DNA of 64,000 nt from Prinia subflava (lineage: Eukaryota; Chordata; Aves; Passeriformes; Cisticolidae), in the NCBI RefSeq assembly GCF_021018805.1, contig NW_026960611.1:1550001-1614000 (forward strand), written 5' to 3'. The position numbers and the translations under genes were made by a program. Positions within the stretch are counted from its first letter, which is position 1, and each line of letters starts with the position of its first letter. Shown here in pieces: positions 29,891-58,080 of the stretch. Under the pieces are notes generated by a model. The model was not told the DNA's origin and did not search any database. It saw only the letters and a program-made list of their open reading frames with translations.

Positions 29891-30405
29891 TGTTGGGAAG
29901 GATGAAGTAGAAAGACCTTACAAATATAGTGGTTTAGATTCTGGGAGTCTGAGTTCAACAAGCGAGATAGAAATGAAAGCATGCTTTGAGATTTAGGGTG
30001 TGGGGTGCAGGGCCATCAGCTTGTGAACAACGACCTGCTAAGCTGAGGGCCAGCCCCCTTGATTAAACAATATACTCCTGCTAAGCTAAAGGCCAGATTG
30101 ATTGATTAAACAATCCCCTTCTGCTTGCCTTGGGTGGTGGGACATTTCTATTGGCTGTATATGTTGTCATCTTGTATTAGATTGGTTAGTCCAACTCATA
30201 CTCTTCAACTTAGAAAGATATTTAATGTACGGGATTCGGGGCTCTGTCTCTCTCGGCTCGGTTCGCTGTTCCTGCTCTCCTGGCCTGCTTTAGCTGTGCC
30301 TAGCAGCTGCAAGCAAGGCCTTCCCAATAAACCACGTGTTACCCTTGCTCATTGCTTATAGAGATACTTTGTCGCCGATTCTACTGTCACGGAAACACTC
30401 CTTCA
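29891..30405 (+). repeat. 5′ LTR of the outer provirus
   Basis: 515 bp, TGTTGGGAAG to ACTCCTTCA. It contains CCAAT-type boxes in reverse (ATTGG near 30,150 and 30,180), a TATA-like GATATTTAAT near 30,218 and a poly(A) signal AATAAA at 30,326-30,331, all in forward order. It differs from the 3′ copy at six single-base sites. Confidence 0.95.
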
Positions 30406-30407
30406 AT

Positions 30408-30425
30408 TGGCGCCCAGCCGTGGAT
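30408..30425 (+). promoter_or_regulatory. Primer binding site, tRNA-Lys-like
   Basis: TGGCGCCCAGCCGTGGAT starts 2 bases after the LTR. The first nine bases TGGCGCCCA agree with the primer site for tRNA-Lys(CTT) used by many betaretroviruses. The rest matches only with a one-base offset (CGTGG). I call it Lys-type with moderate confidence. Confidence 0.7.
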
Positions 30426-30986
30426 GAACGACGGATCCAGCCTTTTCCACCCGTAGGAGATTTCTCCATGGACGGTAACTAAATAACCAGTTTTAGCCAC
30501 CTGAAAGTGTCGCGAGCACAGCTTACGGCTGCAGCGCAGCGCCATAGCTGGAGCTCTTAAAATCTGCCGAGGTACACCTGGAGCACGGGAAGCTGTTACT
30601 GCCGTAGCAGCCTCCTCAAGCTCTCAGAGGAATCTACCTGGCAGTCCTCGAGCACGGGGCCACCGCTGAGCAGCGGCTCCTTGGAGCTCTTCTGAGGATT
30701 TGCGTAGCTACCCTCGAGCCCTGTCTCGCCGTTGCTGGCAGCAGCGTGCCGGAGCTCTGCTGAGGGAATCTGCTACGTGTCAGAGCACACGCGAGTGTTG
30801 CTGAAAGCACCGCCCGCACTACAGCTCTGAGTGGGACGTCCCCAGCACGGCAAGCCAAAGCAGTTGCTCTGAGGAGGGACGTGAAGCAGCGTCCACGCCG
30901 ACGGGAGTGCCCGGCCAACACTCCACGCCGTTTGAGCTAAGGACCCTGCTTTGGCGACACACAGGTGAGAAAAAATCAGTCTAATA
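30426..30986 (+). other. Provirus leader with degenerate repeats and splice donor
   Basis: This GC-rich untranslated leader holds about four or five imperfect copies of a unit of roughly 55-60 bp between about 30,548 and 30,835. They are recognisable by recurring GGAGCTCT, then ATCTGC, then TCGAGCACGG-like blocks. An ACAG/GTGAGA splice-donor-like site is at about 30,961-30,970, 16 bases before the gag start. The leader is where packaging signals normally lie, so the repeats may form RNA stem-loops; this is an inference. Confidence 0.6.
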
Positions 30987-32920
30987 ATGGGGCAATCACA
31001 CTCTACCGGTGATAAATATCTTTATAAGCAACTAAAGCATTTATTGTACTCTAGTCAAAGTAAGTTACCAAAAGAAGAGCTAAAAAGCCTCTTAGAATGG
31101 ACTTTGATTAATTTCCCAAATGTTGACCGGTCAGCTGTATTCACCAAAGAATTCTGGGACACAGTTGGAATTAAGCTCTTTAATAACATTTCCCGCCGTG
31201 ATTTCGCGGCCGGTGAGCTCGTCCCAGCCTGCAGACCACTTGTAGAAATTCTTGCTGCGAAGGAGCGACTCGCGGTAGCTGCTTTGAAGAACGCCGTTCC
31301 CGCCGCGAGTTTGCAGCAGGACACGCCCACCGCCTTCCAGCCGAACCTCGTGGCTCCGGTACCCACCACCCCGCTAGCCCCTGCCGCCCCGTCCCCTCTC
31401 CCCGCGGCCCCTGGCACCTCACCTGCCCCCACTACCCCCCCCTCCACCCCGATCCGCGCCATCCCGCTGCTCCCTGCTGCCCCGGCTCCCGCGGTGTCGG
31501 CCCCCGGTTCCACCGGCGTTGCCGCGGTCCCCCTCCTCACTTCTGCCCCAGCGAGCCCGCCCACCGCCGTCCCTGCGCCCCTATCAGCCCCTCTAAGTCC
31601 CGCCGGGCCGGCCGCTTGCCCCTGCCCACCCACGTCTCTGCCAGCTGCTGTCATCCCACCTCCCCTGGCCGCGGCCTCAACCACCACGTGTTCCCCACGG
31701 CGCCACGCCGCTTCCCCTCCCCCAGCGCCCCCTACACACGTGCCCGCTGCTCCCTTTGTCCCCCTCGGGGCTCCTACGCGGTTCCCGGGTCCAGGCGTTC
31801 CGGCGCGGTTCCCCTGTCACGGTGTACCGCCGAGGTTTCCGAGCCCCGGCGTTCCGGCAGAGCTCCCTTGTCCCGGCGCTGCTGCGCGGGACCTCGTAGA
31901 AGCTGCGCTGAACACCGCAGCCCCAGCTGCGGCCGGTGCCCCGGCGCACCGCCCGCCGCCAGCCCCGGTGCTCGCCGCGGCTGTTCCCGTGTTGGAAACG
32001 GCGCCCTCCCCCCTTCCCGCCGCCGCTCCGGCCCGACCCCCCGATCCCGCCGCCCCAGCGGCTCCGCTCATGCCCGCACAGACCCCTACGTTTGCGGCCG
32101 CCGCGCCCAGAGCTGTGCCTCCCTCCGCGCCCGCAGCGGCAGCCCAGCCTCCTGCCCCCAGTCCCCCCGGAGCGCCTCCGTTGTTCGCCGCGCCGCCGCT
32201 GCTCGCCGTTCCGTCCCGGGCCGTGCCGGCTCCGCCGCAGCCCCCTGCGTCCGAGCTGCTGCGTGGAGTCGCCCCGCCGCTTCTTGCCACCGCCGATGCC
32301 CCGTTCCCGCCCGCGGCCGCGCTGCCCCCCGCGCCCCCAGTCCCGGCTGCGGCGCTGATGGACACAGACACGCAACCCCTGCCTAGCACGTGGGCCATTG
32401 TCCCGCATCACGCGGAACCGCTGGAGTGGCCCGCGCATGCGCAGTTGCCGCTTCCCCGGAACCAGCACGCCCCGCCTCCGCCCCCCGCAGCCTTTGCCGC
32501 GGCTCTGACACAGCCTCCCGGTCCCGACCCGCCGCCTGCCACGGTGCAGCCCCAGCCGGCATCCCTGTGCCCTGCCACGCTGCTCCCGCCGCCTGCCACG
32601 GTGCAGCCCCAGCCGGCATCCCTGTGCCCGCCGCCCCCATGCCAGGCTGCACGGCCGCCGCCGCCGCCAGAGCCGATATTCGCAATTCCAGAACTGTATC
32701 CATCCGCGCCGCCAGCCCGGCCAGTTCCTGCTCCGACAGCCCCAGCTGCAGCCTCTCCGCAAATAATCCCTCCCGCAGCCCTGCCCACCATGCCACCACC
32801 AAGGCACCAGCACACGGCTCGCACGCATCTGCAGCCCCCCGACATGACATCCCTGCCCCCGCCGAGTCCACAGACAACACCGCTACAGCCGATTCCTGCA
32901 CCGCCTTGGATGCATCCTTC
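30987..32920 (+). CDS. gag: Gag, N-terminal part (MA plus Pro/Ala-rich linker), interrupted
   Basis: Retroviral Gag, which assembles particles at the membrane. The start at 30,987 begins M-G-Q-S, a consensus for N-terminal myristoylation. Residues 1 to about 100 look like a betaretroviral matrix domain (W-T-L-I-N-F-P region, V-G-I-K-L-F). From about residue 120 to the insertion point (residue 644) the chain is almost entirely Pro, Ala, Ser and Thr, which is extraordinary for Gag. A 57-bp-period direct repeat at 32,531 and 32,588 lengthens it. The DNA is extremely GC- and CpG-rich. The frame is open to 32,920, where an inner LTR interrupts it. Codons read past that point (Lys-rich, to 32,990) come from the inner LTR's A-tract and are not Gag. 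The reading phase resumes correctly after the insertion at 39,895. Confidence 0.88.
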
Positions 32921-33688
32921 TGTTATGAACGGAAAAAAAAAAAAAAAAAACCAAAAAAAAAAACCACCAAAACAACCACCCCACAACTGACCCTCTCCTG
33001 GCTAGAGTAACACCCCCCACACCCCAGACAATCTGAGCAGGGAGAGCTGCCCTGAAGGAAAGTTGCCTGGCAACTTTTCCCTACCTAATTGAAATGTGAA
33101 AAGAAGCTGCCCACACCTAGATAGCCCTATTGTCCTTTGTAACTACCTCATTTAGCAAGAGTAACTTCGGCTATGACCAGGACAAATGCATATGCATTTG
33201 GATATGCAGATAGGGCAGGGCCGCCCCCGTGGATCCTGGGAGGTTTTTTTGGGGATACTGCACCCCAGGACAGGAAGCTGGATTCGTCAGAAGAGAATGG
33301 GATAGTGCCCTGGCTGAGCGGGGAGTGGGTGCACCTCCTGGCCTGGTTTGAAGATTGGCCATGACCTGTGAGGAGCCTGAATGGAATGGGAACCGGCCAG
33401 CTGAGCTGACTGATGTAGAGAATGGGAAACTCTTGAAACTTTTCCCTGAGGGCAAAGAGCTGACTGCCAGTGCTCTGCCTTCTGATGGTTGACCAGAGAG
33501 AACTGCCAGCTGTTTCTATGGGAACAAGGACTCAGCATCCACTGGGACAGCACCTGCTCCTTCAGATGGCTGCAGTAGTGTGGAAAACTCCAATCGGACT
33601 TTGCAATCCTGCTGATGATTTTAATAATGAGCTGATCACTTTAATAAAGAGATGAATATTAATAAAGGCATATGCCCTGTTCTTTTCA
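32921..33688 (+). repeat. 5′ LTR of the inner element
   Basis: 768 bp from TGTTATGAACGG to TTCTTTTCA. A long A-tract (A18, CC, A11) begins only 12 bases from the left end. It contains a perfect 18-bp palindrome CAAATGCATATGCATTTG (33,183-33,200) and two AATAAA signals close to the right end (about 33,643 and 33,660). Confidence 0.94.
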
Positions 33689-33690
33689 AT

Positions 33691-33708
33691 TGGGGACTCG
33701 TCCGGGAT
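33691..33708 (+). promoter_or_regulatory. Primer binding site, tRNA-Pro-like
   Basis: TGGGGACTCGTCCGGGAT begins 2 bases after the LTR. From memory it differs by one base from the tRNA-Pro primer site of murine-type gammaretroviruses (TGGGGGCTCGTCCGGGAT). Confidence 0.85.
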
Positions 33709-34129
33709 AGCCACGCCCACAAAGGACCACCCCCGAAGAAGGCGATCATCTGCTTCGAGGGATCCTTGGGAATCGCTGGCTACCCCCGGACCTTGACATC
33801 AGCGTGGGACCAAGCAGTACAGAAGAACGCAGGATCGGCCCTGGGATCAGCGCTGGATCGGCCCTGGGATCATCGTGAGACCAAGCAAAGGAGAACGCCA
33901 GATGGGTGAGATAAATCCGTGGCGGAAATGGGAGGCGAGTGAATGAGTGCTTGAGTGAGATGGGGGCCGGCAGCTCGGACCCCCAGAGCGAGAGTGGACC
34001 CCCTAGTATCGCGTTTCCGGCCTCCCGAGAGGGTGCCGGCCGAGAACGGGCGGGAAGCGAATGGCATAGAAGAGTGACTGAGGCGCCTCCTTGGGGGAGG
34101 GCCCCATCGAGCGTGCAAAGGCTCTTGAG

Positions 34130-34870
34130 GTGTGAGGTAAGATCCTCGGCAGGGCAGGTGAGAGGTCCCTGGCAGGGCTGCCCCAGAAGGCAGATGAGAG
34201 ATCCCCAACAGGGAAGGTAATGTCCCTGGCAGGGCTGCCCCAGAAGGCAGATGAGAGATCCCCAACAGGGAAGGTAATGTCCCTGGCAGGGCTGCCCCAG
34301 AAGGCAGGTGAGAGGAGACCCCAGCAGGGCAGGTGAGAGGTCTCTGGCAGGGCTGCTCCAGAAAGCAAGTGAAAGAAGATCCCTGGCACAGCAGGATGCC
34401 CCATCAGGCAGGCGAGGGATGATCCCCGGCAGAGCAGGTGCAAGGTAATGTCCCTGGCATAACAAGACAAGATGCTCCAGTAGGCAGGCGAGAGAAGATC
34501 CCCAGCAGGGCAAGTGAGAGGCCCCTGGCAGGGTTACTCCAGAAGGCAGATGAGAGAAGATCCCCAGCAGGGCAGGTGAGAGGTCTCTGGCAGGGCTGCT
34601 CCAGAAGGGAATTGAAAGAGGATCCCTGGCACGGCAAGATGCCCCATCAGGCAGACGAGGAAAGATCCCCGGCAGAGCAGGTGCAAGGTAATGTCCCCGG
34701 CATGGCAAAACAAGATGCCCCAGTAGGCAGGTAAGAAAAAGTCCCTGGCAGGGCAGGTAGAAAGTCTCGGGCAGGGCAGGATACCCTGACAGGCAGGCAA
34801 GGAAGATCCCTGATAGGGCAAGTGGGAAGTCCCTGGCAGGATAGGGCATGATGTCCCAGGAGGCAGGTGG
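34130..34870 (+). repeat. Leader tandem repeats, about 57-bp units in a 243-bp higher order
   Basis: Imperfect tandem units built from GATCCCCAGCAGGGCAGGTG, then GTCCCTGGCAGGGCTGCCCC, then AGAAGGCAGATGAGA-like blocks. Adjacent units at 34,203 and 34,260 show a 57-bp period. A larger block beginning GATCCCTGGCAC repeats at 34,378 and 34,621 (243-bp period). The minus strand happens to be free of stops for 420 codons through these repeats; this is a composition effect and not a gene. Confidence 0.85.
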
Positions 34871-35046
34871 GCTGTCCCCAAGAGAGTTTAAGCATATCTG
34901 GGCAAGCAAGTAAGATATCATTAGCAAGCAGGAAAGCAGGCATAAAAGTGAGGAAACAGACAAGAAAGCAGACAGGCAAGCAAGAAGGCAAGCAAGATTT
35001 ATGAGCAAAAAAAGGCAAACAAAAAGAGCAGCCAGATAAACAAAAA

Positions 35047-35720
35047 GGGAGGCGAAGGGGACTCGGCCGGAGTTCGGGTGTGAGGCTCGGCAGGACGTTC
35101 GACCTCACCCCGGCAGGGAGTTCGAGTCTCCTAAGCCTAGGGGGCAAGGGGGGCTTGGCTGGAGTTCAGGTGTGAGGCTCGGCAGGAAGTTCGACCTCAC
35201 CCTGGCAGGGAGTTCAAGCCTCCTAAGCCTTGTAGGAAAGGGAGGCGAAGGGGACTCGGCCGGAGTTCGGGTGTGAGGCTCGGCAGGACGTTCGACCTCA
35301 CCCCGGCAGGGAGTTCGAGTCTCCTAAGCCTAGGGGGCAAGGGGGGCTTGGCCGGAGTTCAGGTGTGAGGCTCGGCAGGAAGTTCGACCTCACCCTGGCA
35401 GGGAGTTCAAGCCTCCTAAGCCTTGTAGGAAAGGGAGGCGAAGGGGACTCGGCCGGAGTTCGGGTGTGAGGCTCGGCAGGACGTTCGACCTCACCCCGGC
35501 AGGGAGTTTGAGTCTCCTAAGCCTAGGGGGCAAGGGGGGCTTGGCCGGAGTTCAGGTGTGAGGCTCGGCAGGAAGTTCGACCTCACCCTGGCAGGGAGTT
35601 CAAGCCTCCTAAGCCTTGTAGGAAAGGGAGGCGAAGGGGACTCGGCCGGAGTTCGGGTGTGAGGCTCGGCAAGACGTTCGACCTCAGCCTGGCAGGGAGT
35701 TCAAGCCTCCTAAGCCTTGT
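35047..35720 (+). repeat. 193-bp tandem repeat, about 3.5 copies
   Basis: Units start at 35,047, 35,240, 35,433 and 35,626, exactly 193 bp apart, with very few differences. Each unit consists of two related halves of about 97 bp sharing GGAGTTCRGGTGTGAGGCTC and GTTCGACCTCACCC. This lies in the untranslated leader between primer site and gag-like region, so the copy number probably varies between copies of the element. Confidence 0.93.
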
Positions 35721-35829
35721 GAAGTTAGAGAGTTCAAACAAGACTCAGCAGAGGTCCAAGCCTAGAAAGCCTAAAAAGAAGTTCAGACTTAAGTCGAAAA
35801 GTTAAGAGAGATACCCTTAGCAGAAAACA

Positions 35830-36855
35830 ATGGGTGTGATTCATAGTAGTACGTGTCATAGCCAAGAGAGAGTTTTAAAAAGAGACAGACGAAAAAGTGT
35901 CAAAAGTGGGTTGCCAAGAAATTATATTCTGACCCTTTAAAGTTCAGCAAAGAGATTCAGAATGTTTAGTTGTGAGAGATCAGACAACCTTTAGTTATCT
36001 TAAAGTTTAGATTGCCAATCAGAATATTCCAGTTTAGATTGAAGCATTGTTAAAGTACTTCGTTTTTCCTTTTATTTTAAAGCCTAAAAACTGAGATGAT
36101 GTTATAGTAAACAAGCAGACCCTTCCAAAAAGACAGTAAAGAAGATTCTCCCTAACATCCCCCTGGAACAATTGTCAGACCAATAATATCCTTAAAAGAC
36201 CACAAAGAGTAAAATTACAAAGAGAGTAGTCATAGTGTAAGACCTGAATTCAGTAAATGTGTAACCACTTAAACCAACATTTCTAAGCCCAAGAAGACCC
36301 TGATGTAAAACCACTATCTTATGCAGCCTGCTGGCTAGAAAACTATAAGTAATGAAAATGTGAAAAGATGCAAACTCTCCCTCCTACCCCAGCTGTACCT
36401 CCAGTCTCTTCCTTAACCTCTCCAACAGTTCCCCGTCACCAATTGTGATACCCTCACTTCCCCACTTGGGAGTGGGAACCACCCCTGCCCAGTGTTTCTC
36501 TTGGCCTGTCTCCACTACTGCTCCCTCTACCTGGTGTTTTAGAGGAAGAGACAGATTACAACACCCAATCCAAAGCACCAAGAACAGAGGAGGTCTTTCC
36601 CTTAGAAAAGTTCCTATAGATTAATTAAAAAGATTAAAATTTATAAATGCACCTTTGACAGCCCCTGAAGCCCAAGACTCTAAGAAAGAGAGAGGGTTTA
36701 GTAGAAGACCCCATTGGAATGTCTAACCAGCTAGACCAGCTTCCGAGGCCAAATAGTTATTTCTAGAGAGAGTTAAACTCTATTCTAATAGTTCTGTTCA
36801 CTCCAGAAGAAGCCCGGATAGTCCAGATAGCAAAAAAAAAAAAAAAAAAAAAAGA
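35830..36855 (+). pseudogene. Stop-riddled gag-like remnant in the inner element
   Basis: An ATGGGT start (35,830) lies at the expected gag position. Further on, frames interrupted by many TAG/TAA codons carry gammaretroviral Gag-like pieces: a Pro-rich stretch (36,370-36,540) like the region between matrix and capsid, and at about 36,780-36,835 a segment with L-F-T-P-E-E-A-R that resembles the capsid motif L-x-x-L-x-x-T/P-x-E-R-R-x-V. Many stops lie where a TGG tryptophan codon would be plausible. The assignment rests on short motifs, so it is tentative. An A22-type run (36,832-36,853) ends it. Confidence 0.45.
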
Positions 36856-36912
36856 CTGTGACACCCAAGAGACCATAAGATGCCCTTAATAGACACCAGC
36901 TAAAATTCAGAC

Positions 36913-36916
<4 letters not shown>

Positions 36917-36957
<41 letters not shown>
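36917..36957 (+). repeat. A41 homopolymer
   Basis: Forty-one consecutive A residues inside the inner element, close to another long A-run at 36,832-36,853. They may mark a former poly(A) junction made when pieces of RNA were joined; this is an inference. Confidence 0.9.
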
Positions 36958-36958
<1 letters not shown>

Positions 36959-37199
36959 CAAAGCATGAGAGACTATAGATCCCTGATAGTGAGAATCAAA
37001 GTCTACGGTCTACCTCTCAAAACTACTAGACCCAGTAGTTAAGAGATAACCAACTTGCCTGCAAACAGTTGCAGTAACAGCTACCCTAATAAAAGAAGTC
37101 TAAAAGGTTGATCCTGCAAAAGAAAAATTGCTAAGCCAGAAGACTTAACACTAGTTGACTGACTCTAAAATAATGAACACAAGTGACTTAGAATTAATC

Positions 37200-38702
37200 A
37201 CCCTATGCAGTTTCTCGCTAGAGAACCCCTAGCCAATCTAGAACATGATTCAAAGTAAGAAGAAATTTAGTAATTGCAGACAAAGAGAAAGCAGAAGTGC
37301 TTTATGCTTTGTTTTGCTGCTGTCTTTAGTGAGAAGACAGCTTGTCTTCAAGACAGTGGTCATACTGAGTCAGTAGATATTTTTAAAAACCAGAATAGTC
37401 CTCCTGTTATCAAAAACAAAGTAGTCAGAGAAGTAGTAATTTGCTTGAATGCCCACTCACATGAAATCCATCCCAAAGAGATAAGAGAGCTAACTAATAA
37501 GTTTGCAAAGCCACTCTATCATCTACCAACAGTCTCAACTCACTAGTGAAGTTCTAGATGACTGAGAGCTAGCCAATGTAATTCCCATTCATAAAGAGTA
37601 GAGAAGAGCCTAGTAATTATATGCCAGTTAGCCTGACCAAAGTACCGAGTAGGATGATAAAGCAGTTTATACTGAGAGCTATTGTGCAGCACTAATGAGA
37701 TAAACAGAGTATCAGACCCAGCCAGCATGAGCTTAAGAGAAGTAAGTAGTGTTCGACCCCACTAGCCTCCTTCTCTGACCAGATGACCTGCCTGGTAGAT
37801 ACATGAAAAGTTGTTTATGTTGTCTATTCAGACTTCAGCAAAGTCTTTGACACTGTTTCCCACAGCTTATACAAGAACACTCTTTGCTAAGTTAAGAACT
37901 GGCTAGATACCCAAGCCCAGAGGGTAGTAACGAATAGTGCTGCATCCAGCAGGCAACCAGCCACCAGTGGTGTCCCTCAAAAGTCTGTGCTGAAGCCAGT
38001 TCTATTTATTATATTTATTAATAACACAGATGAAAATACTGAGTCCTTCATTAGTAAATTTACATATGACACTAAGCTGAGAGCACGTGTCCATCTGTTA
38101 GAGAGTAAGAAGACTCTGTAGAGAAACCTAAAATGATTAGATAGATAAGCAAAATCCAAGAAGATAACGTTTAATAAGTCCAAATCCCAGGTGTTGCATT
38201 TTAGCCACAATAACCCCCTGCAACCTTACAAGTTGAAGGTAGTGTAGCTAGACAGTACCCAAGCAGAAAAAGACCTGAAAGTGCTAGTTGATAACCAACT
38301 AAATATGAGCCAGCAGTATGCCCTGATGGCCAAAGCTAACAATATCGTAGGCTGTATTGAGAATAATGTGGCCAGCAGAAGCAGAAAGGTCATCCTTCCT
38401 TACACATAGCATTGGTGAGGCCACTTAGCATTGGTGAGGCCACTCCTTGAGTACTGTGCCCAGTTCTGAGCCCCTCAGTTTAAAAAAAGACATTAAGACG
38501 CTTGAGCGTGTCAAAAGAAAGCAACAAAGCTAGTGAGAAGCTTAAAACACTAGCCCTATAAATACTAGCTGGAAGAGCTGAAGTCACCATTCCTAGATGT
38601 GTGTAAGAAGAGAGTAGATGTAGCACTTAGTGACATCGTGTAATTAGAGTTAGACTTAATCCTAGAAGTCTCTTCCAGCCTAGTGATTCTGTAATTCTGT
38701 AA
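37200..38702 (+). mobile_element. CR1 LINE segment captured in the inner ERV, G-to-A edited
   Basis: Forward-strand CR1, from within the reverse-transcriptase ORF to the 3′ terminus ('tctcttccagcctagtgattctgtaattctgt'). Recognisable conserved stretches include D-F-S-K-x-F-D-T-V (about 37,833), S-G-V-P-Q-x-x-V-L-x-P-V-L-F (about 37,965-38,010), the F-x-x-D-T-K-L region (about 38,055-38,080) and E-R-V-x-R-K (about 38,503). Part of the 3′ end is deleted near 38,575. Nearly every GG expected in CR1 is AG or AA here, which creates many stops. The left boundary is approximate. No LINE-type target-site duplication is visible around it, and the editing runs on into the neighbouring retroviral sequence. 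Confidence 0.88.
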
Positions 38703-39108
38703 CTAAAAAGAGGAAAATTATGAAAGTCTCTTCCAGGTGCTGCTCACCACACATACCGCAGTGTGAACTCCAGAGAGAAGTCAGACCCACGTTACCGGAG
38801 TCACAGGACCAGTACCGCCCCTGATGCCGGACCAGACCCAACAGGACCACCTGCCACCTCTTCTACGTAGATAACAATTGAGAGACCAAGAGACCTATCC
38901 CTAGTTAAATTGTTATCCAGTGTGTCTTAATTCCTGATAAAAAAACCAAGTTTAAAGGCACCCCTCCCACATCTGCTCAGTCTCCCGCTGGGCAATTCCC
39001 CTAGAGAACTCCTAAATTTCTTTGAGCAGTGTCTACTGAGAGGATACACAGTAGGAAGCTGCAAGTTGATGCGGGCTACAGCCCGATCAAAGAAATAGAG
39101 GAGGGATT
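38703..39108 (+). other. Inner element 3′ tail and polypurine tract
   Basis: Non-coding sequence between the CR1 segment and the 3′ LTR. It ends in a purine-rich tract (about 39,090-39,106, AAAGAAATAGAGGAGGGA) adjoining the LTR, the expected site for plus-strand priming. GG dinucleotides are more frequent again here than in the CR1 segment. Confidence 0.65.
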
Positions 39109-39120
39109 TGTTATGAACGG

Positions 39121-39166
<46 letters not shown>

Positions 39167-39890
39167 ACCAAAACAACCACCCCACAACTGACCCTCTCCT
39201 GGCTAGAGTAACACCCCCCACACCCCAGACAATCTGAGCAGGGAGAGCTGCCCTGAAGGAAAGTTGCCTGGCAACTTTTCCCTACCTAATTGAAATGTGA
39301 AAAGAAGCTGCCCACACCTAGATAGCCCTATTGTCCTTTGTAACTACCTCATTTAGCAAGAGTAACTTCGGCTATGACCAGGACAAATGCATATGCATTT
39401 GGATATGCAGATAGGGCAGGGCCGCCCCCGTGGATCCTGGGAGGTTTTTTTGGGGGATACTGCACCCCGGGACAGGAAGCTGGATTCGTCAGAAGAGAAT
39501 TGGATAGTGCCCTGGCTGAGCGGGGAGTGGGTGCACCTCCTGGCCTGGTTTGAAGATTGGCCATGACCTGTGAGGAGCCTGAATGGAATGGGAACCGGCC
39601 AGCTGAGCTGACTGATGTAGAGAATGGGAAACTCTTGAAACTTTTCCCTGAGGGCAAAGAGCTGACTGCCAGTGCTCTGCCTTCTGATGGTTGACCAGAG
39701 AGAACTGCCAGCTGTTTCTATGGGAACAAGGACTCAGCATCCACTGGGACAGCACCTGCTCCTTCAGATGGCTGCAGTAGTGTGGAAAACTCCAATCGGA
39801 CTTTGCAATCCTGCTGATGATTTTAATAATGAGCTGATCACTTTAATAAAGAGATGAATATTAATAAAGGCATATGCCCTGTTCTTTTCA
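39109..39890 (+). repeat. 3′ LTR of the inner element
   Basis: 782 bp. It is identical to the 5′ copy except for a longer, uninterrupted A44 tract (39,121-39,164), two substitutions and one G-run length change near 39,450-39,500. The 18-bp palindrome is at 39,384-39,401. The ATG at 39,854 in this LTR opens the downstream frame by chance and is not the Gag start. Confidence 0.94.
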
Positions 39891-41398
39891 CTTCTGTGCC
39901 ACCCTCTCTGCCATACGCTGCCGGCCCAAGCCCAGCCACATCTTTGAGAGACCCCTCACCAGCGCACGACCCTGCCCAGCTAACAGCTGATGTGCCTTCC
40001 CTGTCAGCTCCTCTGCCTCCGATGCCTGCTGCCCTACCCCAGCCACCGAATCTCCTCGGTCACCCAGCTGCGTTCCCGCCCTCCGCACCCCTACCACCAA
40101 ATGAGACTTCATTGTATCACAACTCGTCCATACAGTCCCAGCCATGCACACAAACCGTGCAACGAAAAGGGGGAGAGTGGAATACAACAGCTGCTTCAAT
40201 GAATACAGGACAGACAGAGAACTATTTTGTCCCTGCAAATGACAACCCTTTGATTCAAATACAAGAGAACCCTGAAAAACAACTAAGTCTGTTCCCAAAC
40301 AGCTCTACATGCCCCCCTGTCCCTGTGTTTGGGACAGACTTCTCAACCCAAAATGAGACATTAAACCCTGATTATTCACTAACATCAATCCCAAAAGTAC
40401 AAAACCCCCAGAAGTGCTTCGACAATTCCCAGTTCACAGACTGGCATGAAGTCAAACGCTTGATTTGCAAAGAGGAAAGTCTGAATCCTCTAGCTATGCC
40501 TGTGCTATTGAGCCAACAAGCCGAAAATACAAGAACATGGACAGCTATCCCACCTCATGAAATAAAAGAACTACGAACAGCAGTGAAAGACAGTGGCATT
40601 TGCTCACCCTATTTTAAACAACTGCTTAAAAGTATGATAGAAGAACACACGCTGACACCAAATGACTGTAAAAATCTCGCCAGTGTAATTCTCACAGATT
40701 CACAATATATGCTGTGGGAACACATATGGAGAAGAATGCTTACAGGAGTTTTGACCATTTACAGGCAAAGCACTGATGCAACTCTTCGCACCCTTACCAT
40801 ATCTAAGTTGACTGGTGAGCATCCTGATGACCGGAATGAAGATCAAGTGAACCTACCCAGAATAGTATTTGATGACATTAAAAAAATGGCTCGTAGAGCC
40901 TTTTTGCAGATTCAGCCTGCAGGAAGTTTTGAAAAAGCCTACAATCTGATCAGTCAAGAGCTGTCTGAACCATTTACTGCATTTGCAGACCGAGTGATAC
41001 AAGCAGCAGAAAGGCAATGTGGCGATGATATAGCTTGCCCAATTATGATAAGAGACATTATTGAAAATAATGCCAATGCTGAATGTAAAAGAGTAATCAA
41101 AGCCCTAGGAAAACAAAGACCCACAGTACCTGAAATGATTGAAGCTTGCAACAAAATTGGAAGTCCACAGCAAGTGGCAGCTATCCAAGCAAATGAACTT
41201 GGAAAGACTTTAGGAGAAAAAATTGAACGAGCTCTTATGGCTCAGGCAACACAAGCAGAGGCACGAGACCAAAAACTGACTGAAATTCTAGCTGCTTTGC
41301 ACCTGAACTCCCAGCAACAAAACAACACCATGGCTGTTATGCAAACTGCTGTAACCTCAGCACCTTGCTACTTTTGTAAAAACCTGGTCATATTGTGA
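39891..41398 (+). CDS. gag: Gag, C-terminal part (linker end, capsid, start of nucleocapsid)
   Basis: Continuation of the outer element's Gag after the inner insertion. The phase matches the part ending at 32,920, so the insertion fell into a frame still open at that time. It starts with more Pro-rich linker, then a region with an acidic/Asn-rich stretch, then a betaretroviral capsid: W-T-A-I-P-P-H-E-I-K-E-L-R region at about 40,530-40,575 and a major homology region (S-E-P-F-T-A-F-A-D-R, about 40,963-40,993). A Gln-rich coiled segment follows. The first zinc knuckle begins C-Y-F-C (about 41,368) but the frame is lost by one base in an A-run just after, and translation stops at 41,398. The ORF track start at 39,854 is in the LTR and is not native. 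Confidence 0.87.
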
Positions 41399-41490
41399 GA
41401 AATTGCCCAGAAATTAAAAGAGGTGCACAAGCACCGCATCGCTGCCATGCCTGCAAGAAAGGGAAACATCATGCCTGGCAATGTCGAGCT
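41399..41490 (+). pseudogene. Out-of-frame nucleocapsid zinc-knuckle remnant
   Basis: In another frame (one base off the capsid frame), the end of the first zinc knuckle and a complete second one, C-x2-C-x4-H-x4-C (41,443-41,484), are still readable. Two knuckles are typical for betaretroviral nucleocapsid. After this the sequence soon loses any Gag or protease similarity; no protease DTG/DSG motif is seen. Confidence 0.75.
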
Positions 41491-41770
41491 AAGCATGACA
41501 CAAGGCAAACCCACTCTCCAAAAAACTCCAAAGCGAGTGCGCAATGCCATCACGTGACGTAACAAATAGTGGCATCCCAAGCACCCGAGGCAAAATTTAT
41601 GAATGCCCCGACTCCACAACACTCTGCTACATTACCAGTCAGATCCCAAGTACTGACCCAGACCTACTACCACCAAGATCCTGGCGAACTTTGGCAACCT
41701 CCAAATCAACAACACTTTTAAAAGACAATAGCTAAATCGTTTGTTTGATAGTTGGAGCTTTGTACCTTAG

Positions 41771-42028
41771 CTAAAGGAACTTTGCAAAATAAGCCTGTTC
41801 ATTTTAATAGTAATAGTAATAGTTGTAGTTTTAGTAGCAGTTCCCTGCATACTTCAGTGTGTACAGAAAATTATGAGTAAAGCAGTTTCTAGTATTTTAA
41901 TTGTTCATCAGAACGGGGGAGATGTTGGGAAGGATGAAGTAGAAAGACTTTACAAATATAGTGGTTTAGATTCTGGGAGTCTGAGTTCCACAAGCGAGAT
42001 AGAAATGAAAGCAAGCTTTGAGATTTAG
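41771..42028 (+). pseudogene. Env transmembrane-tail remnant
   Basis: An open frame of 85 codons without its own start, between stops at 41,768 and 42,026. It holds a run of about 20 hydrophobic residues (mostly Ile, Val, Leu; 41,795-41,854) followed by P-C-I-L-Q-C-V-Q-K. This is like the membrane anchor and the Cys-containing start of the cytoplasmic tail of a retroviral transmembrane Env protein. The frame runs into the 3′ LTR. All of surface Env and the outer part of the transmembrane subunit are missing. The deletion therefore joins the end of gag to the end of env. Confidence 0.65.
41911..41922 (+). promoter_or_regulatory. Polypurine tract of the outer provirus
   Basis: GAACGGGGGAGA directly abuts the TG of the 3′ LTR, the normal place and composition of the plus-strand primer. 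Confidence 0.85.
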
Positions 42029-42437
42029 GGTGTGGGGTGCAGGGCCATCAGCTTGTGAACAACGACCTGCTAAGCTGAGGGCCAGCCCCCTTGATTAAAC
42101 AATATACTCCTGCTAAGCTAAAGGCCAGATTGATTGATTAAACAATCCCCTTCTGCTTGCCTTGGGTGGTGGGACATTTCTATTGGCTGTATATGTTGTC
42201 ATCTTGTATTAGATTGGTTAGTCCAACTCATACTCTTCAACTTAGAAAGATATTTAATGTACGGGATTCGGGGCTCTGTCTCTCTCGGCTCGGTTCGCTG
42301 TTCCTGCTCTCCTGGCCTGCTTTAGCTGTGCCTAGCAGCTGCAAGCAAGGCCTTCCCAATAAACCACGTGTTACCCTTGCTCATTGCTTATAGAGATACT
42401 TTGTCGCCGACTCTACCGTCACAGAAACACTCCTTCA
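41923..42437 (+). repeat. 3′ LTR of the outer provirus
   Basis: 515 bp, same termini as the 5′ LTR. Six substitutions separate the pair. It is followed at once by the second GCTTCC duplication. Confidence 0.95.
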
Positions 42438-42443
42438 GCTTCC

Positions 42444-45400
42444 AAACTAATCAAGGATATTAGTCTTTCTAGAATACTTAGGCAAACCATACAGAGGTAA
42501 CTGGGGAAATCCAGATGGTTACTGCCACACTAACGTGCACTTTACTGATAATGGCTACCCAGATTTCCAGAGCTTCTCAGTATATTCTCATTGTACTCAT
42601 ATGGCTCCATTATGCCAATAATAGCTAGAATTAATTGCTTCTAATTGAGGTTGGTGGTATTAAATCAAATTAGTGTCCACAGCATAATACAAACAATGTC
42701 AACAACACTAGCTCTGTTACAGCAACTAAATAGAAACTAAATACAAGTGTTCAAAATTGCATCCTTTAGTGATCTTCTGTGAGTTAAATTCTGGCCATTA
42801 AAGAAGAATGACGTTTTACAAGAACACCCCTTAGGAGTTTCACCATCTCCCCTCCATAACATGAGCCCAACCCAATCAACCCAAATTTTGAAGATTCAGG
42901 TAAGGGTGAAAGAACCAGTATGCACAATTCATGCTGCTGAAAGATGTCTGATAATATCCGTGACTGCAAGAAAGTTTGTCCTTTTTCCCTCCTCGGGTAA
43001 AACTTTCAAAATATGTTAAATACCTGAGAAAGAGGTGCAATGACATCTGTAAAATAGCAAAGTACTGATATTTCTGTTCTTTTCAAGCCCCATTTCCACT
43101 GCTGCTAGCTGCAGAACTTCAAATGGGGTAAGACTCTCTGGCTAGACTGTCCAGAGAATCTCCACTGATCTCAGTGGACAGTTTGGCAATTCTTTTTATT
43201 TCTGCTGTCCTGAGACGGAATTCATGACTGTCACACATGACAGTGACCGCAATGATTTTTTAATTACTTAGAGTGACACTGACATAGCTGAACTGATATC
43301 AAAAAAGATTTTAACCTGGACTGAATTTTCCTACTGAGAATCAAGCTTACTTTTACTATCTGCTGTATTTTCAAGCAGGCGTGCATCACTTTCCATAGCT
43401 TTGCCATTTCTCCTGAGTTGTCAAGAATGAGCCTCCACCCAAACATGGGATGGCAGAGATGTGGTTAATCATTTACAGAGCCTTTCAGTGGCACATCCCA
43501 TAATAACGCATTTAGATGTGATAAAAGTGATGTAGACACTTGTCTTTCAGAAAGCAGGCTCAAAACTGAATAGATAATTTAAAGGAGGGGTTGGGTTTTT
43601 TTGAAAGAGGGGTAAAATTTATTTCTTCTGAACTTCTATCCCATGCTTGAGCAATTATCTGGAGAACTGCTGGTAAACATCTTGTCAAGATTAGTTCCAT
43701 TACTTATGGGGAGATGTCAAATATCCACCTGTATCCCAGGGAAATTACACTAAATCTGCTGAATGTTATTTCTGCCCTGAGGAAATCCTCCAAGCATTCA
43801 ATTGAAATAAATATTGATAACCTGACCTGCTACTTGCAGAAATTTCTTTGTTGATACCAATCAAATAGAAACTGTGCAATATTAAGGGCTTACTCTGACC
43901 AAGCTCAGGACACTTCCAGGTGTGGAAGGTGGCCCCCACAGAGCACTTATAGTGCAGACAAGTGAAAAGAACAGACCTTGGGTTTAATTCTGATTTTCCA
44001 GGTCATAAAAACCACATTAAAAAAAAAAAAAAAAAAAAAAAGACCGGATGAGCTACCCAGATGTTACCTAAACCATCCTTTGGCCAAGGCCAAGGCTATC
44101 TCAATCATTTGTATTAATGTCACAAAGAAATTGATAGGAAGAAATCTATGGAGTAAGCACACAGAACCAGATTGTCAAATAGATGGCACAACCATCCCTT
44201 TGCTCCTGGGTAACAAAGCTGGATGAAGGGCAACTTAGGACACAAAGAAGCTTTGGGACTGAGGTTTTGTCTCCCAAGTTGCCACCAATTCTCTGCCCCA
44301 GAAAAGTCAAACATTACTCTTGAAAAGAAATTAATAAATGGTCGAAGAAACAAAATGGCTGGACCTCATTGTTCAAAAGATTTTTTTCCTATTTAATTTT
44401 ATTCAGTTTCATGGTATTAGGTTTGTTAATTTTGCTACAGATTTACAGCTGCTGACTTTCTAAAGTGATTTTGTTAGACATCAAGGCTACACTAGAACCT
44501 GAAATGCTATTAAACACAACTGTGAGTTTTTCTATGCCTGAAATATCTCCTGAAATTCCAATAGTTTGGCAGTGTGATGAGCATGGAAAGACATTCACAC
44601 CTGATTTCCCTGCAGTCAATTAAGGTGTTTTTCTATGTGTGCAAAGTATCAACATCTTGTAATATTTATCTGTAAAGTAGAAAAAGATGTTTCATACTGA
44701 GCTGCTGGAAATGTCCTAAAGAATATCTTTAAATACTGATGTTTCCCAATGTAGTCCTTAGACATTCTATTTGCAGTGACATTTCAGCTTGCTATAATTT
44801 TGCTGTAATTAAACCCCTCCATTTTTTTCCCCTAGATAATTTGTGCATATAGACAACTGCATTTTCCTGGTACAACTAATTTGATATTTCACCAGCTTCT
44901 CTTATGAGCAGGAAGAATTCAAAGTTACTTAGCACATTTTAAGCATTTTTTTCTTCTGTTTGTAATTATACGTTGCACCTGCTTAAAATCCAGGGGAACA
45001 AATGACTAGACAAAAAAAAAAAAAAAAGAACATAAGAGTCATACTTCAAACTGATGTGCAGAACACACTATTCATGGAGGTAGAAATTGTTCACTTAGCA
45101 TCCCAGTCACCTGTTGTGTCAAAGGACCAAATTGCCAATATGAGCAGGGGTTGTTTTTCCAAAACTGAGATTGGCATTTAGGTGTTAATGTGTCTGACAA
45201 AATTAGTTTGATTTGAGATTCTGGAACTTCAGGAACTCCAAAAAATTACCCAATCTTAACTTTGAAAACTGAATTAGAAGTGTTGTAATTAGGGGGGAGT
45301 TTGAAACCTTCGTTAAACCCCACTTCAGATACAAGTTAAGATATTCAAGACTCATTGTTCAAGTCTCAAAGAACCTACTATATAAGATATATTGAGCACA

Positions 45401-47229: not shown

Positions 47230-47790
47230 TTATATTTTACCCATTTCTGGGTCATGGATTAGTACTGGTGGTTTTTCCTTGCAGGAAAGCGATGTGGATG
47301 ATATAAAATGCCTAGTCATAGGGGGATTTAAGTCTGTCATTGAACAATTCAAGAAATTAAAAACATACAGGGCTTTGCATAATCTTTCAGCAGGAGTGTC
47401 CCCAGCTCCCCCCTTTTGTTGTAACAGAAGACGTTTGAGAGAGCCATGGGCACATGCTATAACTGATTGTCCTGTGGGTGAGTGAGGTATCCCTCTTTTG
47501 TGGGTGATACCCCATAAGGAGAGGAAGTTTGCAACTCTACGGGAAATGTATGCGGGTCCATTATCTGTCTTACTCTGTTGCGGAATTCCTAAGGTGGCAA
47601 AGGCAGCAGCGAAATGACGGCAGGCGCCTTTCCCTGTCTCTCCCGTGTGAGCTGAAGCAAACAGAGCACCTGAAAAGGTGTCAATAGAAGCATGCACAAA
47701 TTTCAAAGGGCCGAATTCAGGAATGTGTGTCACATCTGTCTGCCAAATTTGCAGGCTCTGTAGACCTCTTGGGTTGACTGCTGTGTTCAC
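47230..47790 (-). pseudogene. pol: Betaretrovirus-like integrase catalytic core, damaged
   Basis: 186 open codons with strong resemblance to alpha/betaretroviral integrase: W-Q-T-D (first catalytic Asp, residue 19), K-T-D-N-G-P-A-Y (second Asp, residue 76) and A-H-G-S-L-K after the third position. The expected catalytic Glu, 35 residues after the second Asp (residue 112), is Ala in this frame, so the enzyme would be inactive. The start Met is only the first one in the open stretch; the frame is broken upstream. Integrase normally inserts viral cDNA into the host genome. Confidence 0.85.
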
Positions 47791-52424: not shown

Positions 52425-54551
52425 TTACAACGTATTATCATTTGCATCAGTCTTTGTTGTCGCAATTGTCTCAGGGGCAGAAGCCTCCTTAATTCTGGAG
52501 TAGTGGATCCGTGGTCCTTGGCCAGCGACTTTTACTGCGGTGAAGGTGGTCAGCAGGACTTGAAATGGTCCCTTCCATCTTGCTTGTAAAGGATCACTGT
52601 CCCACCACTTAACATACACCCAATCTCCAGGTTGGAAAGGATGTACGGGTGTATCCAATCCTATGGGTCTAGATAACACGACATAGGTTTGAAGCTTCTG
52701 CAAAGTAGAACTAAGAGCCATTAAATATCTTTGTAAATCAAGTTTCCCTTTCATATGAATCTCACCTGGGATATGTGGGATTTGATAGGGTCTCCCATAC
52801 AATATTTCATAGGGACTGATGTTATCCCTTCGCCTGGGTTGGATGCGAATTCTTAATAAGGCTATAGGCAGCGCTTGGACCCATGTCATAGATGTCTCTT
52901 GACAAATTTTTCTAATTTGTGTCTTAAGAGTCCCATTCATACGTTCAACTTTACCGCTCGCTTGGGGTCTATATGATGTGTGCAAGTCCCAGGCAATTCC
53001 CAAGATTTGACTGATCTCTTTAATCACCTTTGCAACGAAGTGTGGTCCCCTATCTGATGACATTCCCAAGGGAACCCCGAACCTTGGAATGATATGGTTA
53101 AGCAAGACTTTTGTTACTTCCCTAGCCATATTGGTGCAACAGGGGTAAGCTTCCGGCCATCCACTGAAAGTGTCCACTAGTACCAGCAAGTATCGGTATC
53201 CCTCTTTACGTGGTAACTCCGCAAAATCTATTTGCCAGTAATCCCCAGGAAGATCCCCTGCCTTTGTTACTCCTAACACCACTCTTTTCCTCGTGTCAGG
53301 ATTGTTTTTACAACAAATTTCACATTTACTCACTACTGATTGTGCAATGTCAGCCATTCCCTTCCCTATCACTACCTTTTTTAAATGTTTTAGAAGATTC
53401 TCAACTCCAAAATGTGTGTTTTCATGTTCTCTCTGGGCTAGTTCCCGAAGGATCAAGGATGATACTACAACCTGATTTGCTGGTGTAACAGCCCATCCAC
53501 TCTCTGTGATCTTAGCCTTAAGGAACTTAATTAGTTTATGATCAGCTTGATCATATTTTGGGGTAAACTCAGATAAATCAATTTCTTTTTGTGGAATTAC
53601 TGCTAGGATACCTTTTTCTGCAATTCCTCTTGCCACTTTATCAGCAAAGCAGTTTCCCAATTCTGGAACAGTTTTCCCTTTTTGGTGACCTTTACAGTGC
53701 ATAATAGCTACTCCTGTGGGTTTTTTAATGCTCTCTAAAAGAGCAAGTATTTGTTGAGCATGTTTAATTGGATTGCCTTGAGCGTTCAGAAGTCCTCTCT
53801 CCTTCCAGATGGCTCCGTGGGCATGGACAACACTGAACGCGTACCTAGAATCAGCCCAGATATTTACCTTCATTCCTTCACTCAAGTCTAAGGCCCTCGT
53901 CAGTGCAATCAATTCAGCCTTCTGCGATGATACATCTGCCGGCAGGGCCTTGGCCTCAGTCACCTTGTCCTGTGTGGTCACAGCATAACCAGTCATTCTT
54001 TTACCATTTTTCACAAAGCTACTCCCATCTGTGAAGAGTTCCCAATCTGGATCTTCTAGGGGCCTGTCCTTCAAATCTGGTCGACTAGAATGGACTTCTT
54101 CAATTGTTTGTAAGCAGTCATGTTCAGGCATACCGTCAATTAACGTGGGAGACAAAAACATAGCCGGGTTAACGACAGAAGTGGTTTTCAAAGTAACGTC
54201 ATCCTGCTCTAGCAGCAGTGCTTGATACTTAAGCATCCGGCTACCAGATAACCAATGTACCCCCTTTTGCTCAAGTACAGCTTCTACAGCATGGGGTACA
54301 TACACCACAATGTGTTGCCCAAGGGTGAGCTTTCGGGCTTCTTGAATCAGGATGACAGTGGCTGCCACAGCCTTCAGACACCCTGGCCAGCCTTGGGCAA
54401 CATGGTCTAGCTGTTTAGAGAAGTAGGCCACAGCCCTCCGTTGGTTCCCAAGCCGCTGTGCTAGTACCCCCAAAGCCATATTCAGTCTTTCATATGTAAA
54501 CAGTTCGAAAGGTTTAGTTAAGTCTGGCAGACCCAGCGCCGGAGCTGACAT
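52425..54551 (-). CDS. pol: Pol, C-terminal part: RT connection, RNase H, integrase
   Basis: 708 open codons; the Met at 54,551 is simply the first in frame after a frame break, not a native start. Order: end of reverse transcriptase/connection (S-A-P-A-L-G-L-P-D, residues 2-10), RNase H with Asp175 (T-D-G-S-S), Glu213, Asp234 and Asp304, then integrase with the His376/His380 and Cys410/Cys413 zinc site, catalytic Asp442, Asp500 and Glu536 (35 residues between the last two) and a C-terminal G-P-F-x-V-type domain (near residue 665). All catalytic residues that I can check are present. The domain order and the G-P-F motif are gammaretroviral. In this copy it is out of frame with the reverse transcriptase, so it cannot be made as one Pol polyprotein. 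The stop at 52,425 leaves no room for env. Confidence 0.93.
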   Translation of the reverse strand: MSAPALGLPDLTKPFELFTYERLNMALGVLAQRLGNQRRAVAYFSKQLDHVAQGWPGCLKAVAATVILIQEARKLTLGQHIVVYVPHAVEAVLEQKGVHWLSGSRMLKYQALLLEQDDVTLKTTSVVNPAMFLSPTLIDGMPEHDCLQTIEEVHSSRPDLKDRPLEDPDWELFTDGSSFVKNGKRMTGYAVTTQDKVTEAKALPADVSSQKAELIALTRALDLSEGMKVNIWADSRYAFSVVHAHGAIWKERGLLNAQGNPIKHAQQILALLESIKKPTGVAIMHCKGHQKGKTVPELGNCFADKVARGIAEKGILAVIPQKEIDLSEFTPKYDQADHKLIKFLKAKITESGWAVTPANQVVVSSLILRELAQREHENTHFGVENLLKHLKKVVIGKGMADIAQSVVSKCEICCKNNPDTRKRVVLGVTKAGDLPGDYWQIDFAELPRKEGYRYLLVLVDTFSGWPEAYPCCTNMAREVTKVLLNHIIPRFGVPLGMSSDRGPHFVAKVIKEISQILGIAWDLHTSYRPQASGKVERMNGTLKTQIRKICQETSMTWVQALPIALLRIRIQPRRRDNISPYEILYGRPYQIPHIPGEIHMKGKLDLQRYLMALSSTLQKLQTYVVLSRPIGLDTPVHPFQPGDWVYVKWWDSDPLQARWKGPFQVLLTTFTAVKVAGQGPRIHYSRIKEASAPETIATTKTDANDNTL

Positions 54552-57897: not shown

Positions 57898-58080
57898 TCT
57901 GATATTCACAACAAAGAACAAAACAAATATTCCTAGTACCCCCCTTTATTCACTCACGTGCCTCTGTTTCAAAGGTTCTTGGCTCCGGCACTTCTGGACC
58001 TCTGCTGGCAGGGTGAAGGCGGGCGGAGGGGGGGGTGCTGCCTTCTTTTGGTCCACAGAAGATTTCCCAGACGCCTCCTT
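57898..58080 (-). other. Provirus leader with possible splice donor
   Basis: A short leader between primer site and gag. On the minus strand CACGTGAGTG (57,951-57,960) has a good splice-donor core, GTGAGT. As there is no env to splice to, it would be a relic or unused. The leader also has a C-rich/G-rich run near 58,028-58,036. Confidence 0.5.

What the first reader, a model, noticed from the sequence alone, without database searches (positions are those of the whole stretch)
35760..38702. Regional G-to-A editing signature in the inner ERV
In 37,561-38,700 I count by hand about 18 GG against about 71 CC dinucleotides, although the CR1 consensus is rich in GG on this strand. Where CR1 is recognisable, expected GG reads AG or AA (for example 'agctagtgag' for a CR1-like 'agctggtgag'), and many stops look like TGG turned into TAG or TAA. 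The two LTRs and the leader repeats keep plentiful GG. This is what cytidine deamination of minus-strand cDNA during reverse transcription produces (APOBEC-type editing). Heavy editing of LTR elements has been reported in some birds, but a mosaic copy with a sharply edited interior would be notable.
Basis: partly seen in the sequence, partly recalled or inferred. Interest (0 to 1): 0.85.

Follow-up and report, generated by a model that had tools for sequence, protein, structure and literature searches.

The report
Retrovirus family from a hypermutated ancestor
A bird retrovirus-like element carries very dense G-to-A damage of the kind left by antiviral DNA-editing enzymes, and because the other copies examined share the same damage, an already edited ancestor seems to have gone on to multiply in the genome instead of dying out.

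Summary
The counts are exact: 18 GG, 71 CC in 37,561-38,700. The G-to-A editing reading holds, but the event is not private to this copy. The inner element is a class-I ERV whose interior joins a pol remnant to a sense piece of a CR1 LINE. Against four close unedited CR1s of the same genome, 84 of 113 GG sites read A; the mirror change, C>T at CC, hits 5 of 68. At 128 polarised GG sites, 18 copies give 90 A in all, 27 G in all, none evenly split. One 35-base stretch of pol shows the same against 14 unedited places. So an ancestor was edited before the family spread. Of 100 listed pol matches 91 carry the edited form, on 27 contigs. Four of four insertions examined have different flanks and 4-bp duplications; three sibling LTR pairs differ by 0, 0 and 1 substitution. 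Private changes show no G>A excess in siblings (7 G>A, 15 C>T); the window copy has a weak one (7 to 1, mostly not at GG). Best reading: an edited, gene-dead provirus founded a non-autonomous, presumably helper-moved family.

The parts
32922..32925 (.). 4-bp target site duplication, left copy (CTTC)
   Evidence: Read from the sequence; the same four bases follow the 3' LTR.
32926..33688 (+). 5' LTR of the inner element (TG...CA), not GG-depleted
   Evidence: 99.3% to the 3' LTR over 756 bases: 2 substitutions and one 1-base indel outside the A-run; GG ratio 1.15.
33691..33708 (+). Presumed primer binding site directly behind the 5' LTR
   Evidence: Position and sequence. Likeness to the tRNA-Pro site of MLV-type viruses is recalled; not tested.
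33691..35720 (+). Leader with tandem repeats, GG-rich, not edited by composition
   Evidence: GG ratio 1.07, 282 GG; repeats D1, D3, D7. Two pieces across 13 copies: 6 private G>A and 6 C>T.
35720..36974 (+). Interior left part, probably gag remnant; GG-depleted to 36,370 (7 GG, ratio 0.31), not at 36,371-36,815 (ratio 1.0)
   Evidence: Its gag nature rests on position and an ATG at 35,831; the only protein match is not significant (E 0.61).
36993..37229 (+). pol remnant (RT/RNase H connection), edited
   Evidence: tblastn with the pol of the ERV at 52-55 kb: E 5.8e-7 in a 5.4-kb target, stops inside. GG ratio 0.17 in 36,975-37,560. G in 14 of 14 unedited places where the window has A at 4 of 35 positions.
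37274..38700 (+). CR1 LINE piece in sense orientation, heavily edited (ORF2 aa 312-760 and 836-858 of 858, plus 3' end)
   Evidence: tblastn; G>A 131 of 327 G against C>T 26 of 224 C with four close CR1s.
38710..39114 (+). 3' end of the interior up to the LTR, little GG-depleted (ratio 0.82); perhaps the end of integrase at its start
   Evidence: integrase-end match 38,710-38,763 has E 0.22 only.
39115..39889 (+). 3' LTR of the inner element, not GG-depleted
39890..39893 (.). 4-bp target site duplication, right copy (CTTC)

Best explanation
A gammaretrovirus-like provirus whose pol was joined to a CR1 LINE piece was deaminated by an APOBEC-type enzyme on its minus-strand cDNA, which turned about three quarters of the GG sites measured into A on the plus strand. 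SHOWN: strand- and context-specific G>A in the CR1 piece and in 35 bases of pol; the same edited and spared sites in the 18 copies compared; dispersed insertions with their own target duplications and near-identical LTR pairs. INFERRED: that the edited DNA integrated, was transcribed from unedited LTRs, packaged through its unedited leader and copied by proteins of another ERV, and so founded a family that was mobile until recently; that editing came in one round; that a host APOBEC1-like enzyme did it.
For: CR1 copy to window: G>A 112-140 against C>T 21-34 and A>G 15-33 in 30 of 30 genomic CR1 loci. With four close CR1s: GG 84/113, GA 25/81, GC 11/65, GT 11/67, mirror C>T at CC 5/68; GG against other G p 3.6e-20. 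Control between two unedited CR1s: G>A 23, A>G 33. 128 GG sites over 18 copies: 90 all A, 27 all G, 5 A in all but at most 2, 2 G in all but at most 2, 4 fixed for another base. Pol: 91 edited and 9 unedited rows of 100 listed, 105 matches in all, reversed control 0; 14 unedited places. 58 of 59 exact CR1/ERV junctions lie next to a listed edited pol row, in three size classes of 14, 33 and 11; 0 of the 9 listed unedited pol places lie within 6 kb of such a junction. TSDs CTTC, CCTG, ATAA, CAGC; sibling LTR pairs 1/704, 0/706, 0/706. Mean distance of 18 copies 0.53%. No plus-strand ORF of 120 aa between the LTRs. Six APOBEC_N matches in the host genome. The other gamma ERV family (12 loci, RT region) shows no such excess.
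Against: The viral part is proved by letters over only 35 bases, found with a pattern that allowed only purine changes and one mismatch, so the lack of other differences there is partly built in. Piece 36,371-36,815 and the 400 bases before the 3' LTR are hardly depleted, which a simple gradient rising towards the 3' end does not predict. No unedited CR1-bearing copy was found, so the order CR1 capture, editing, spread is inferred. The window copy has 7 private G>A against 1 C>T (p about 0.03), 5 of the 7 at GA and 1 at GG, so slight later editing of this copy is possible. The helper, and the enzyme, were not tested.
Confidence: 0.8

Rival explanations
1. Mosaic founder: an edited interior was joined by template switching to an unedited leader and 3' end of an active relative, and the recombinant founded the family.
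For: Sharp change at 35.7 kb and low depletion after 38.72 kb; bases just behind the leader look like an edited repeat unit (score 78, 300 shuffles mean 50.2, maximum 68, with a scoring that favours G/A).
Against: Low editing of leader and LTRs is also expected from the order of reverse transcription (general knowledge); the repeat likeness is weak.
Confidence: 0.35
2. Editing in several rounds along the lineage before the spread, not in one burst.
For: Uneven depletion along the interior; only the end state is seen in the copies compared.
Against: No intermediate among 18 copies at 128 GG sites.
Confidence: 0.3
3. Each copy was edited on its own at the same hot sites.
For: GG is a strong context, and mouse Mtvs share some edited sites (PMC12548423, passages).
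Against: About a quarter of GG sites are spared, and the same ones are spared in the 18 copies; no evenly split site of 128.
Confidence: 0.01
4. Ordinary decay or a naturally G-poor, A-rich genome.
For: Some retroviruses are A-rich (general knowledge).
Against: The CR1 piece is of host origin and shows the same; C>T on the same strand is not raised alike (26/224 against 131/327); CC is not depleted.
Confidence: 0.01
5. The copies arose by segmental duplication, not retrotransposition.
For: Some contigs are rich in copies (17 of 91 on C36).
Against: Different flanks and own 4-bp duplications in 4 of 4 insertions examined, LTR pairs 0-1 apart in three siblings; 27 contigs.
Confidence: 0.03

Closest known systems
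APOBEC ultra-edited bird ERVs, such as zebra finch TguERVL1_I-int and TguLTRK1 (Knisbacher and Levanon 2016, not held; numbers from Table 3 of PMC12548423, section 6 read)
   Same: Plus-strand G>A clusters in a songbird ERV. Listed load 71.5 and 57.2 G>A per kb; here about 125 per kb raw in the CR1 piece against L039 (137 in 1,096 sites).
   Different: Here the edits are shared by the copies compared and precede the spread; the yardstick is a captured LINE; our figure includes ordinary divergence from L039 (C>T 29 of 234).
Hypermutated mouse Mtvs (Mtv21, Mtv61; PMC12548423, passages and section 6)
   Same: Extreme load (Mtv21 120.8 per kb); abrupt change along Mtv61, for which the authors suggest recombination.
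   Different: Single proviruses, TC-type context, enzyme mouse APOBEC3; here a dispersed family with GG context in a bird.
Edited primate gammaretroviral ERVs (CERV, RhERV; PMC2564838, passages)
   Same: Gamma ERVs with GG to AG changes; authors name recombination between edited and intact proviruses.
   Different: There edits are scored as departures of single copies from the family consensus; here such a comparison would miss them.
Non-autonomous LTR families moved in trans (ETn/MusD type; recalled, from no call)
   Same: Keeps LTRs and leader, no long ORF, recent spread.
   Different: Gene loss here goes with deaminase editing and a LINE piece; the helper is not identified.

Membership tests
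APOBEC-type hypermutated retroelement | Plus-strand G>A far above C>T | tested here: met
   131 of 327 G against 26 of 224 C.
APOBEC-type hypermutated retroelement | Dinucleotide context | tested here: met
   GG 84/113; other G 47/213.
APOBEC-type hypermutated retroelement | Trp codons turned into stops | tested here: met
   5 of 8, 4 of 7, 5 of 9 and 5 of 8 Trp codons in the four CR1 loci with a 450-residue open frame; but other residues also give stops (8 of 13 with L031).
APOBEC-type hypermutated retroelement | Flanking DNA not affected | tested here: met
   GG/(GG+AG) 0.38 and 0.41 left and right of the ERVs.
APOBEC-type hypermutated retroelement | Load rises towards the 3' polypurine tract | tested here: not met
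   Leader low, 36.9-38.7 kb high, but 38.7-39.1 kb low. Known cases also depart from it (Mtv61).
APOBEC-type hypermutated retroelement | Host deaminase with CC preference | tested here: inconclusive
   Six APOBEC_N matches, a cluster on C3 and one on C23; activity and gene names not tested.
Class-I (ERV1, gamma-like) ERV | 4-bp target duplication and TG...CA LTRs | tested here: met
   4 of 4 insertions; 4 bp for ERV1 as in PMC6523648 (passage).
Class-I (ERV1, gamma-like) ERV | MLV-type pol | tested here: met
   78-codon remnant, E 5.8e-7 in a small target, to a pol with MLVIN_C.
Class-I (ERV1, gamma-like) ERV | tRNA primer site | not tested
   Sequence behind the LTR only; tRNA likeness recalled.
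CR1 LINE | ORF2 homology | tested here: met
   E 1e-111.
CR1 LINE | 3' end ATTCTRTG (PMC6523648, passage) | tested here: inconclusive
   The window has two ATTCTGTA at the place, one letter off, of the G to A kind.
Non-autonomous LTR family | No own genes | tested here: met
   No plus-strand ORF of 120 aa between the LTRs.
Non-autonomous LTR family | Recent insertions in different places | tested here: met
   (four insertions).
Non-autonomous LTR family | Helper in trans | not tested
   Candidate gamma pol lineages with long open frames exist; no link to this family was shown.

The most novel reading that the evidence does not exclude
A near-lethal burst of host deaminase editing created, instead of ending, a successful parasite: an edited, gene-dead provirus with a captured LINE piece became the founder of a large helper-dependent family that spread largely without further editing. 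Antiviral editing would then be a birth route for non-autonomous retroelements.
Probability: 0.6. Interest if true: 0.75.

Novelty: new variant of a known kind. Interest (0 to 1): 0.62.

Why it matters
Hypermutation is usually read as the death of a provirus. Here the edited form is the common one (91 of 100 listed pol matches; 14 places carry the unedited form at the site tested) and its insertions are recent. It also matters in practice: scans that compare copies only with each other would miss it, because the copies agree, and inherited G>A load would mislead dating. The captured CR1 gives an outside yardstick that most edited ERVs lack. In my searches of the open library I saw no listing of a recently mobile family founded by an edited copy; the key 2016 survey is not held, so it may be reported there.

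Tried and rejected
Rejected: independent editing of each copy; ordinary decay; segmental duplication. A three-letter (G=A) alignment within the window gave mainly low-complexity matches. The gamma ERV at 52-58 kb is too distant to polarise the viral part in DNA; the RT region of 12 loci of its family shows no G>A excess. No unedited CR1-bearing progenitor was found.

Corrected on checking: I first wrote that later copies show no further editing. One search counts 14 private G>A and 16 C>T over 13 copies, but splits them: the window copy has 7 G>A and 1 C>T of 17 private changes (contexts GA 5, GG 1, GT 1), the siblings together 7 G>A and 15 C>T.

Limits: DNA searches of the genome score only the best 40 candidates (of 894 and 906), so relatives of intermediate identity can hide. 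The four close CR1s were picked for low A>G; the true donor may differ, and all 30 loci together give much the same (GG 82/113). In one search sites were counted over the copies with a base there; the 11 non-GG sites classed as mixed, of 245, were not looked at one by one. In one search letters were shown for 14 of 59 places, all of the A-rich form; 45 were not seen. In one search the figures for L053 and L054 (0 nt) are an orientation error of my script; one search shows that they carry the extra CR1 stretch. For L016 and L018 the counts there include about 60 flanking bases on each side. My note says about 93 edited rows; the recount is 91.

Full report
What was claimed.

Check. The counts are exact (18 and 71). 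None of 5,000 base shuffles came as low. The loss of GG is one-sided: over 35,720-38,720 the GG ratio is 0.41, CC 1.57, AG 1.65, while leader (1.07) and LTRs (1.15, 1.18) are normal. The edges lie near 35,720 and 38,720; the last 400 bases before the 3' LTR are only slightly low (0.82) and 36,371-36,815 is not depleted.

What the element is. It has TG...CA LTRs of about 0.76 kb and a 4-bp duplication CTTC, and it sits within the gag of an outer ERV whose own LTRs lie 12.03 kb apart. Between its LTRs there is a leader full of repeats, a probable gag remnant (position only), a pol remnant related to the MLV-type pol at 52-55 kb on the other strand (E 5.8e-7 in a 5.4-kb target), a CR1 LINE piece in sense orientation (37,274 to about 38,700) and a 3' end whose integrase match is not significant (E 0.22). 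No plus-strand ORF of 120 codons lies between the LTRs.

Polarising the changes. The CR1 piece can be compared with CR1s that have nothing to do with the ERV. The genome holding the window is available (1.12 Gb). A recalled CR1 protein gave 146 matches, 30 of which came as loci. All 30 show G>A (112-140) towards the window far above C>T (21-34) and A>G (15-33). With the four closest (L039, L044, L046, L048): G>A 131 of 327 G, C>T 26 of 224 C, T>C 20 of 245 T, A>G 10 of 238 A. By 3' neighbour: GG 84/113, GA 25/81, GC 11/65, GT 11/67; C>T at CC 5/68. GA is also somewhat above GC and GT (p 0.018), while GC and GT do not differ from C>T (p 0.20). Two unedited CR1s compared with each other show no G>A excess (23 against 33 A>G). 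Trp codons of the four CR1 loci with a 450-residue open frame are stops here at 5 of 8, 4 of 7, 5 of 9 and 5 of 8; with L031, 8 of 13 stops lie at other residues.

The viral part. A purine-ambiguous 35-base pattern from pol had 105 matches, with 0 for the reversed control. Of 100 rows listed, 91 carry the edited and 9 an unedited form. A second pattern, with one GG fixed, found 14 places; 9 are identical to each other and 5 have one mismatch to the pattern. Against the nine, the window differs at 4 of 35 positions, in two GG pairs, G there and A here; one pair was fixed by the pattern, the other reads GG in 14 of 14. Because the patterns allowed only purine changes and one mismatch, the lack of other differences is partly built in. 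The rest of the viral part rests on composition.

Shared, not private. Twelve sibling interiors and five further loci were compared. The twelve have the same GG depletion as the window piece by piece. At 128 GG sites of the CR1 piece, the copies with a base there (up to 18, window included) give 90 all A, 27 all G, 5 A in all but one or two, 2 G in all but one or two, and 4 fixed for another base. So editing preceded the spread. Private changes in 13 copies: siblings 7 G>A and 15 C>T; window 7 G>A and 1 C>T, of which 5 at GA and 1 at GG (p about 0.03). The family as a whole thus shows no continued editing at GG, and the window copy may have a little at GA. In two leader pieces the 13 copies have 6 private G>A and 6 C>T.

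Spread. The 91 listed edited pol places lie on 27 contigs. Of 59 exact CR1/ERV junctions, 58 pair with a listed edited pol row at 1.63-1.65 kb (14), 1.74-1.86 kb (33) or 2.16-2.21 kb (11), which I read as internal deletions of one founder. L016, L018, L053 and L054 keep a CR1 stretch that the window lacks; in L016 and L018 it too is edited (G>A 42 and 39 against C>T 9 and 9 with the best CR1, flanks included). The window, C19, C46 and C43 insertions have different flanks and the duplications CTTC, CCTG, ATAA, CAGC; the LTR pairs of the last three differ at 1, 0 and 0 of about 705 bases. The mean distance between 18 copies is 0.53%, and the window is the outlier with 1.0%: a young family.

Mechanism. 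Plus-strand G>A at GG is what deamination of minus-strand cDNA at CC leaves (established for APOBEC3; general knowledge). Birds lack APOBEC3 (general knowledge; the abstract of PMC5399452 in the listing calls A3s specific to eutherian mammals). The genome has six APOBEC_N matches: three that look like exons of one gene and two more within 25 kb on C3, and one on C23. By position I suspect AICDA with two APOBEC1-like neighbours; the names are not tested. PMC3880073 (passage) notes an A1 homologue in zebra finch. The unedited leader fits the order of reverse transcription; the little-edited 3' end does not fit a simple gradient and may point to recombination, or to a second start of plus-strand synthesis at the purine tract at 38,705-38,717 (speculation).

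Known and new. [quoted passage not shown] Table 3 of PMC12548423 (section 6) lists 71.5 G>A per kb for a zebra finch ERV and 120.8 for mouse Mtv21. Here it is about 125 per kb raw in the CR1 piece against L039. What I did not see, within the searches named under Why it matters, is an edited founder of a recently mobile family. Host: a songbird by the nearest protein match (Prinia subflava, 95% identity over 94% of the query); the species is not established.

Noticed in passing
29891-42500: Outer ERV with near-identical LTRs (99% over the 300 bases shown, 12.03 kb apart) whose gag-like frame with a very proline-rich stretch is split by the inner element; its nearest protein match is from Prinia subflava (95%).
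   Followed up: partly
52425-57921 (minus strand): Another gamma-like ERV with long gag and pol frames (Gag_p30, RVT_1, RNase_H, rve, MLVIN_C); 12 loci of its family show no G>A excess in RT.
   Followed up: partly
47230-47790 (minus strand): Isolated retroviral integrase core fragment.
   Followed up: no
33746-35717: Leader of the inner element is filled with tandem repeats (about 60-base and 92/101-base units) whose number seems to differ between copies; it also holds a 420-codon frame on the minus strand.
   Followed up: no
38409-38446: About 19 bases of the CR1 piece stand twice in tandem and keep their GG; the 100-base bin from 38,350 has the lowest editing (2 of 7 GG sites).
   Followed up: no
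35718-35860: Bases just behind the leader resemble a repeat unit with G turned to A (score 78; 300 shuffles mean 50.2, maximum 68).
   Followed up: partly
window element, 35720-39116: The window copy has twice the divergence of its siblings and 7 private G>A against 1 C>T, mostly at GA.
   Followed up: partly
contigs C36-C51 of G000: Many copies of this family and many young CR1s and gamma ERVs lie on a set of small contigs, as on a repeat-rich chromosome such as W (guess).
   Followed up: no
G000 C26: 8 of the 14 places with the unedited pol form lie on one contig, which also holds 3 edited ones.
   Followed up: no
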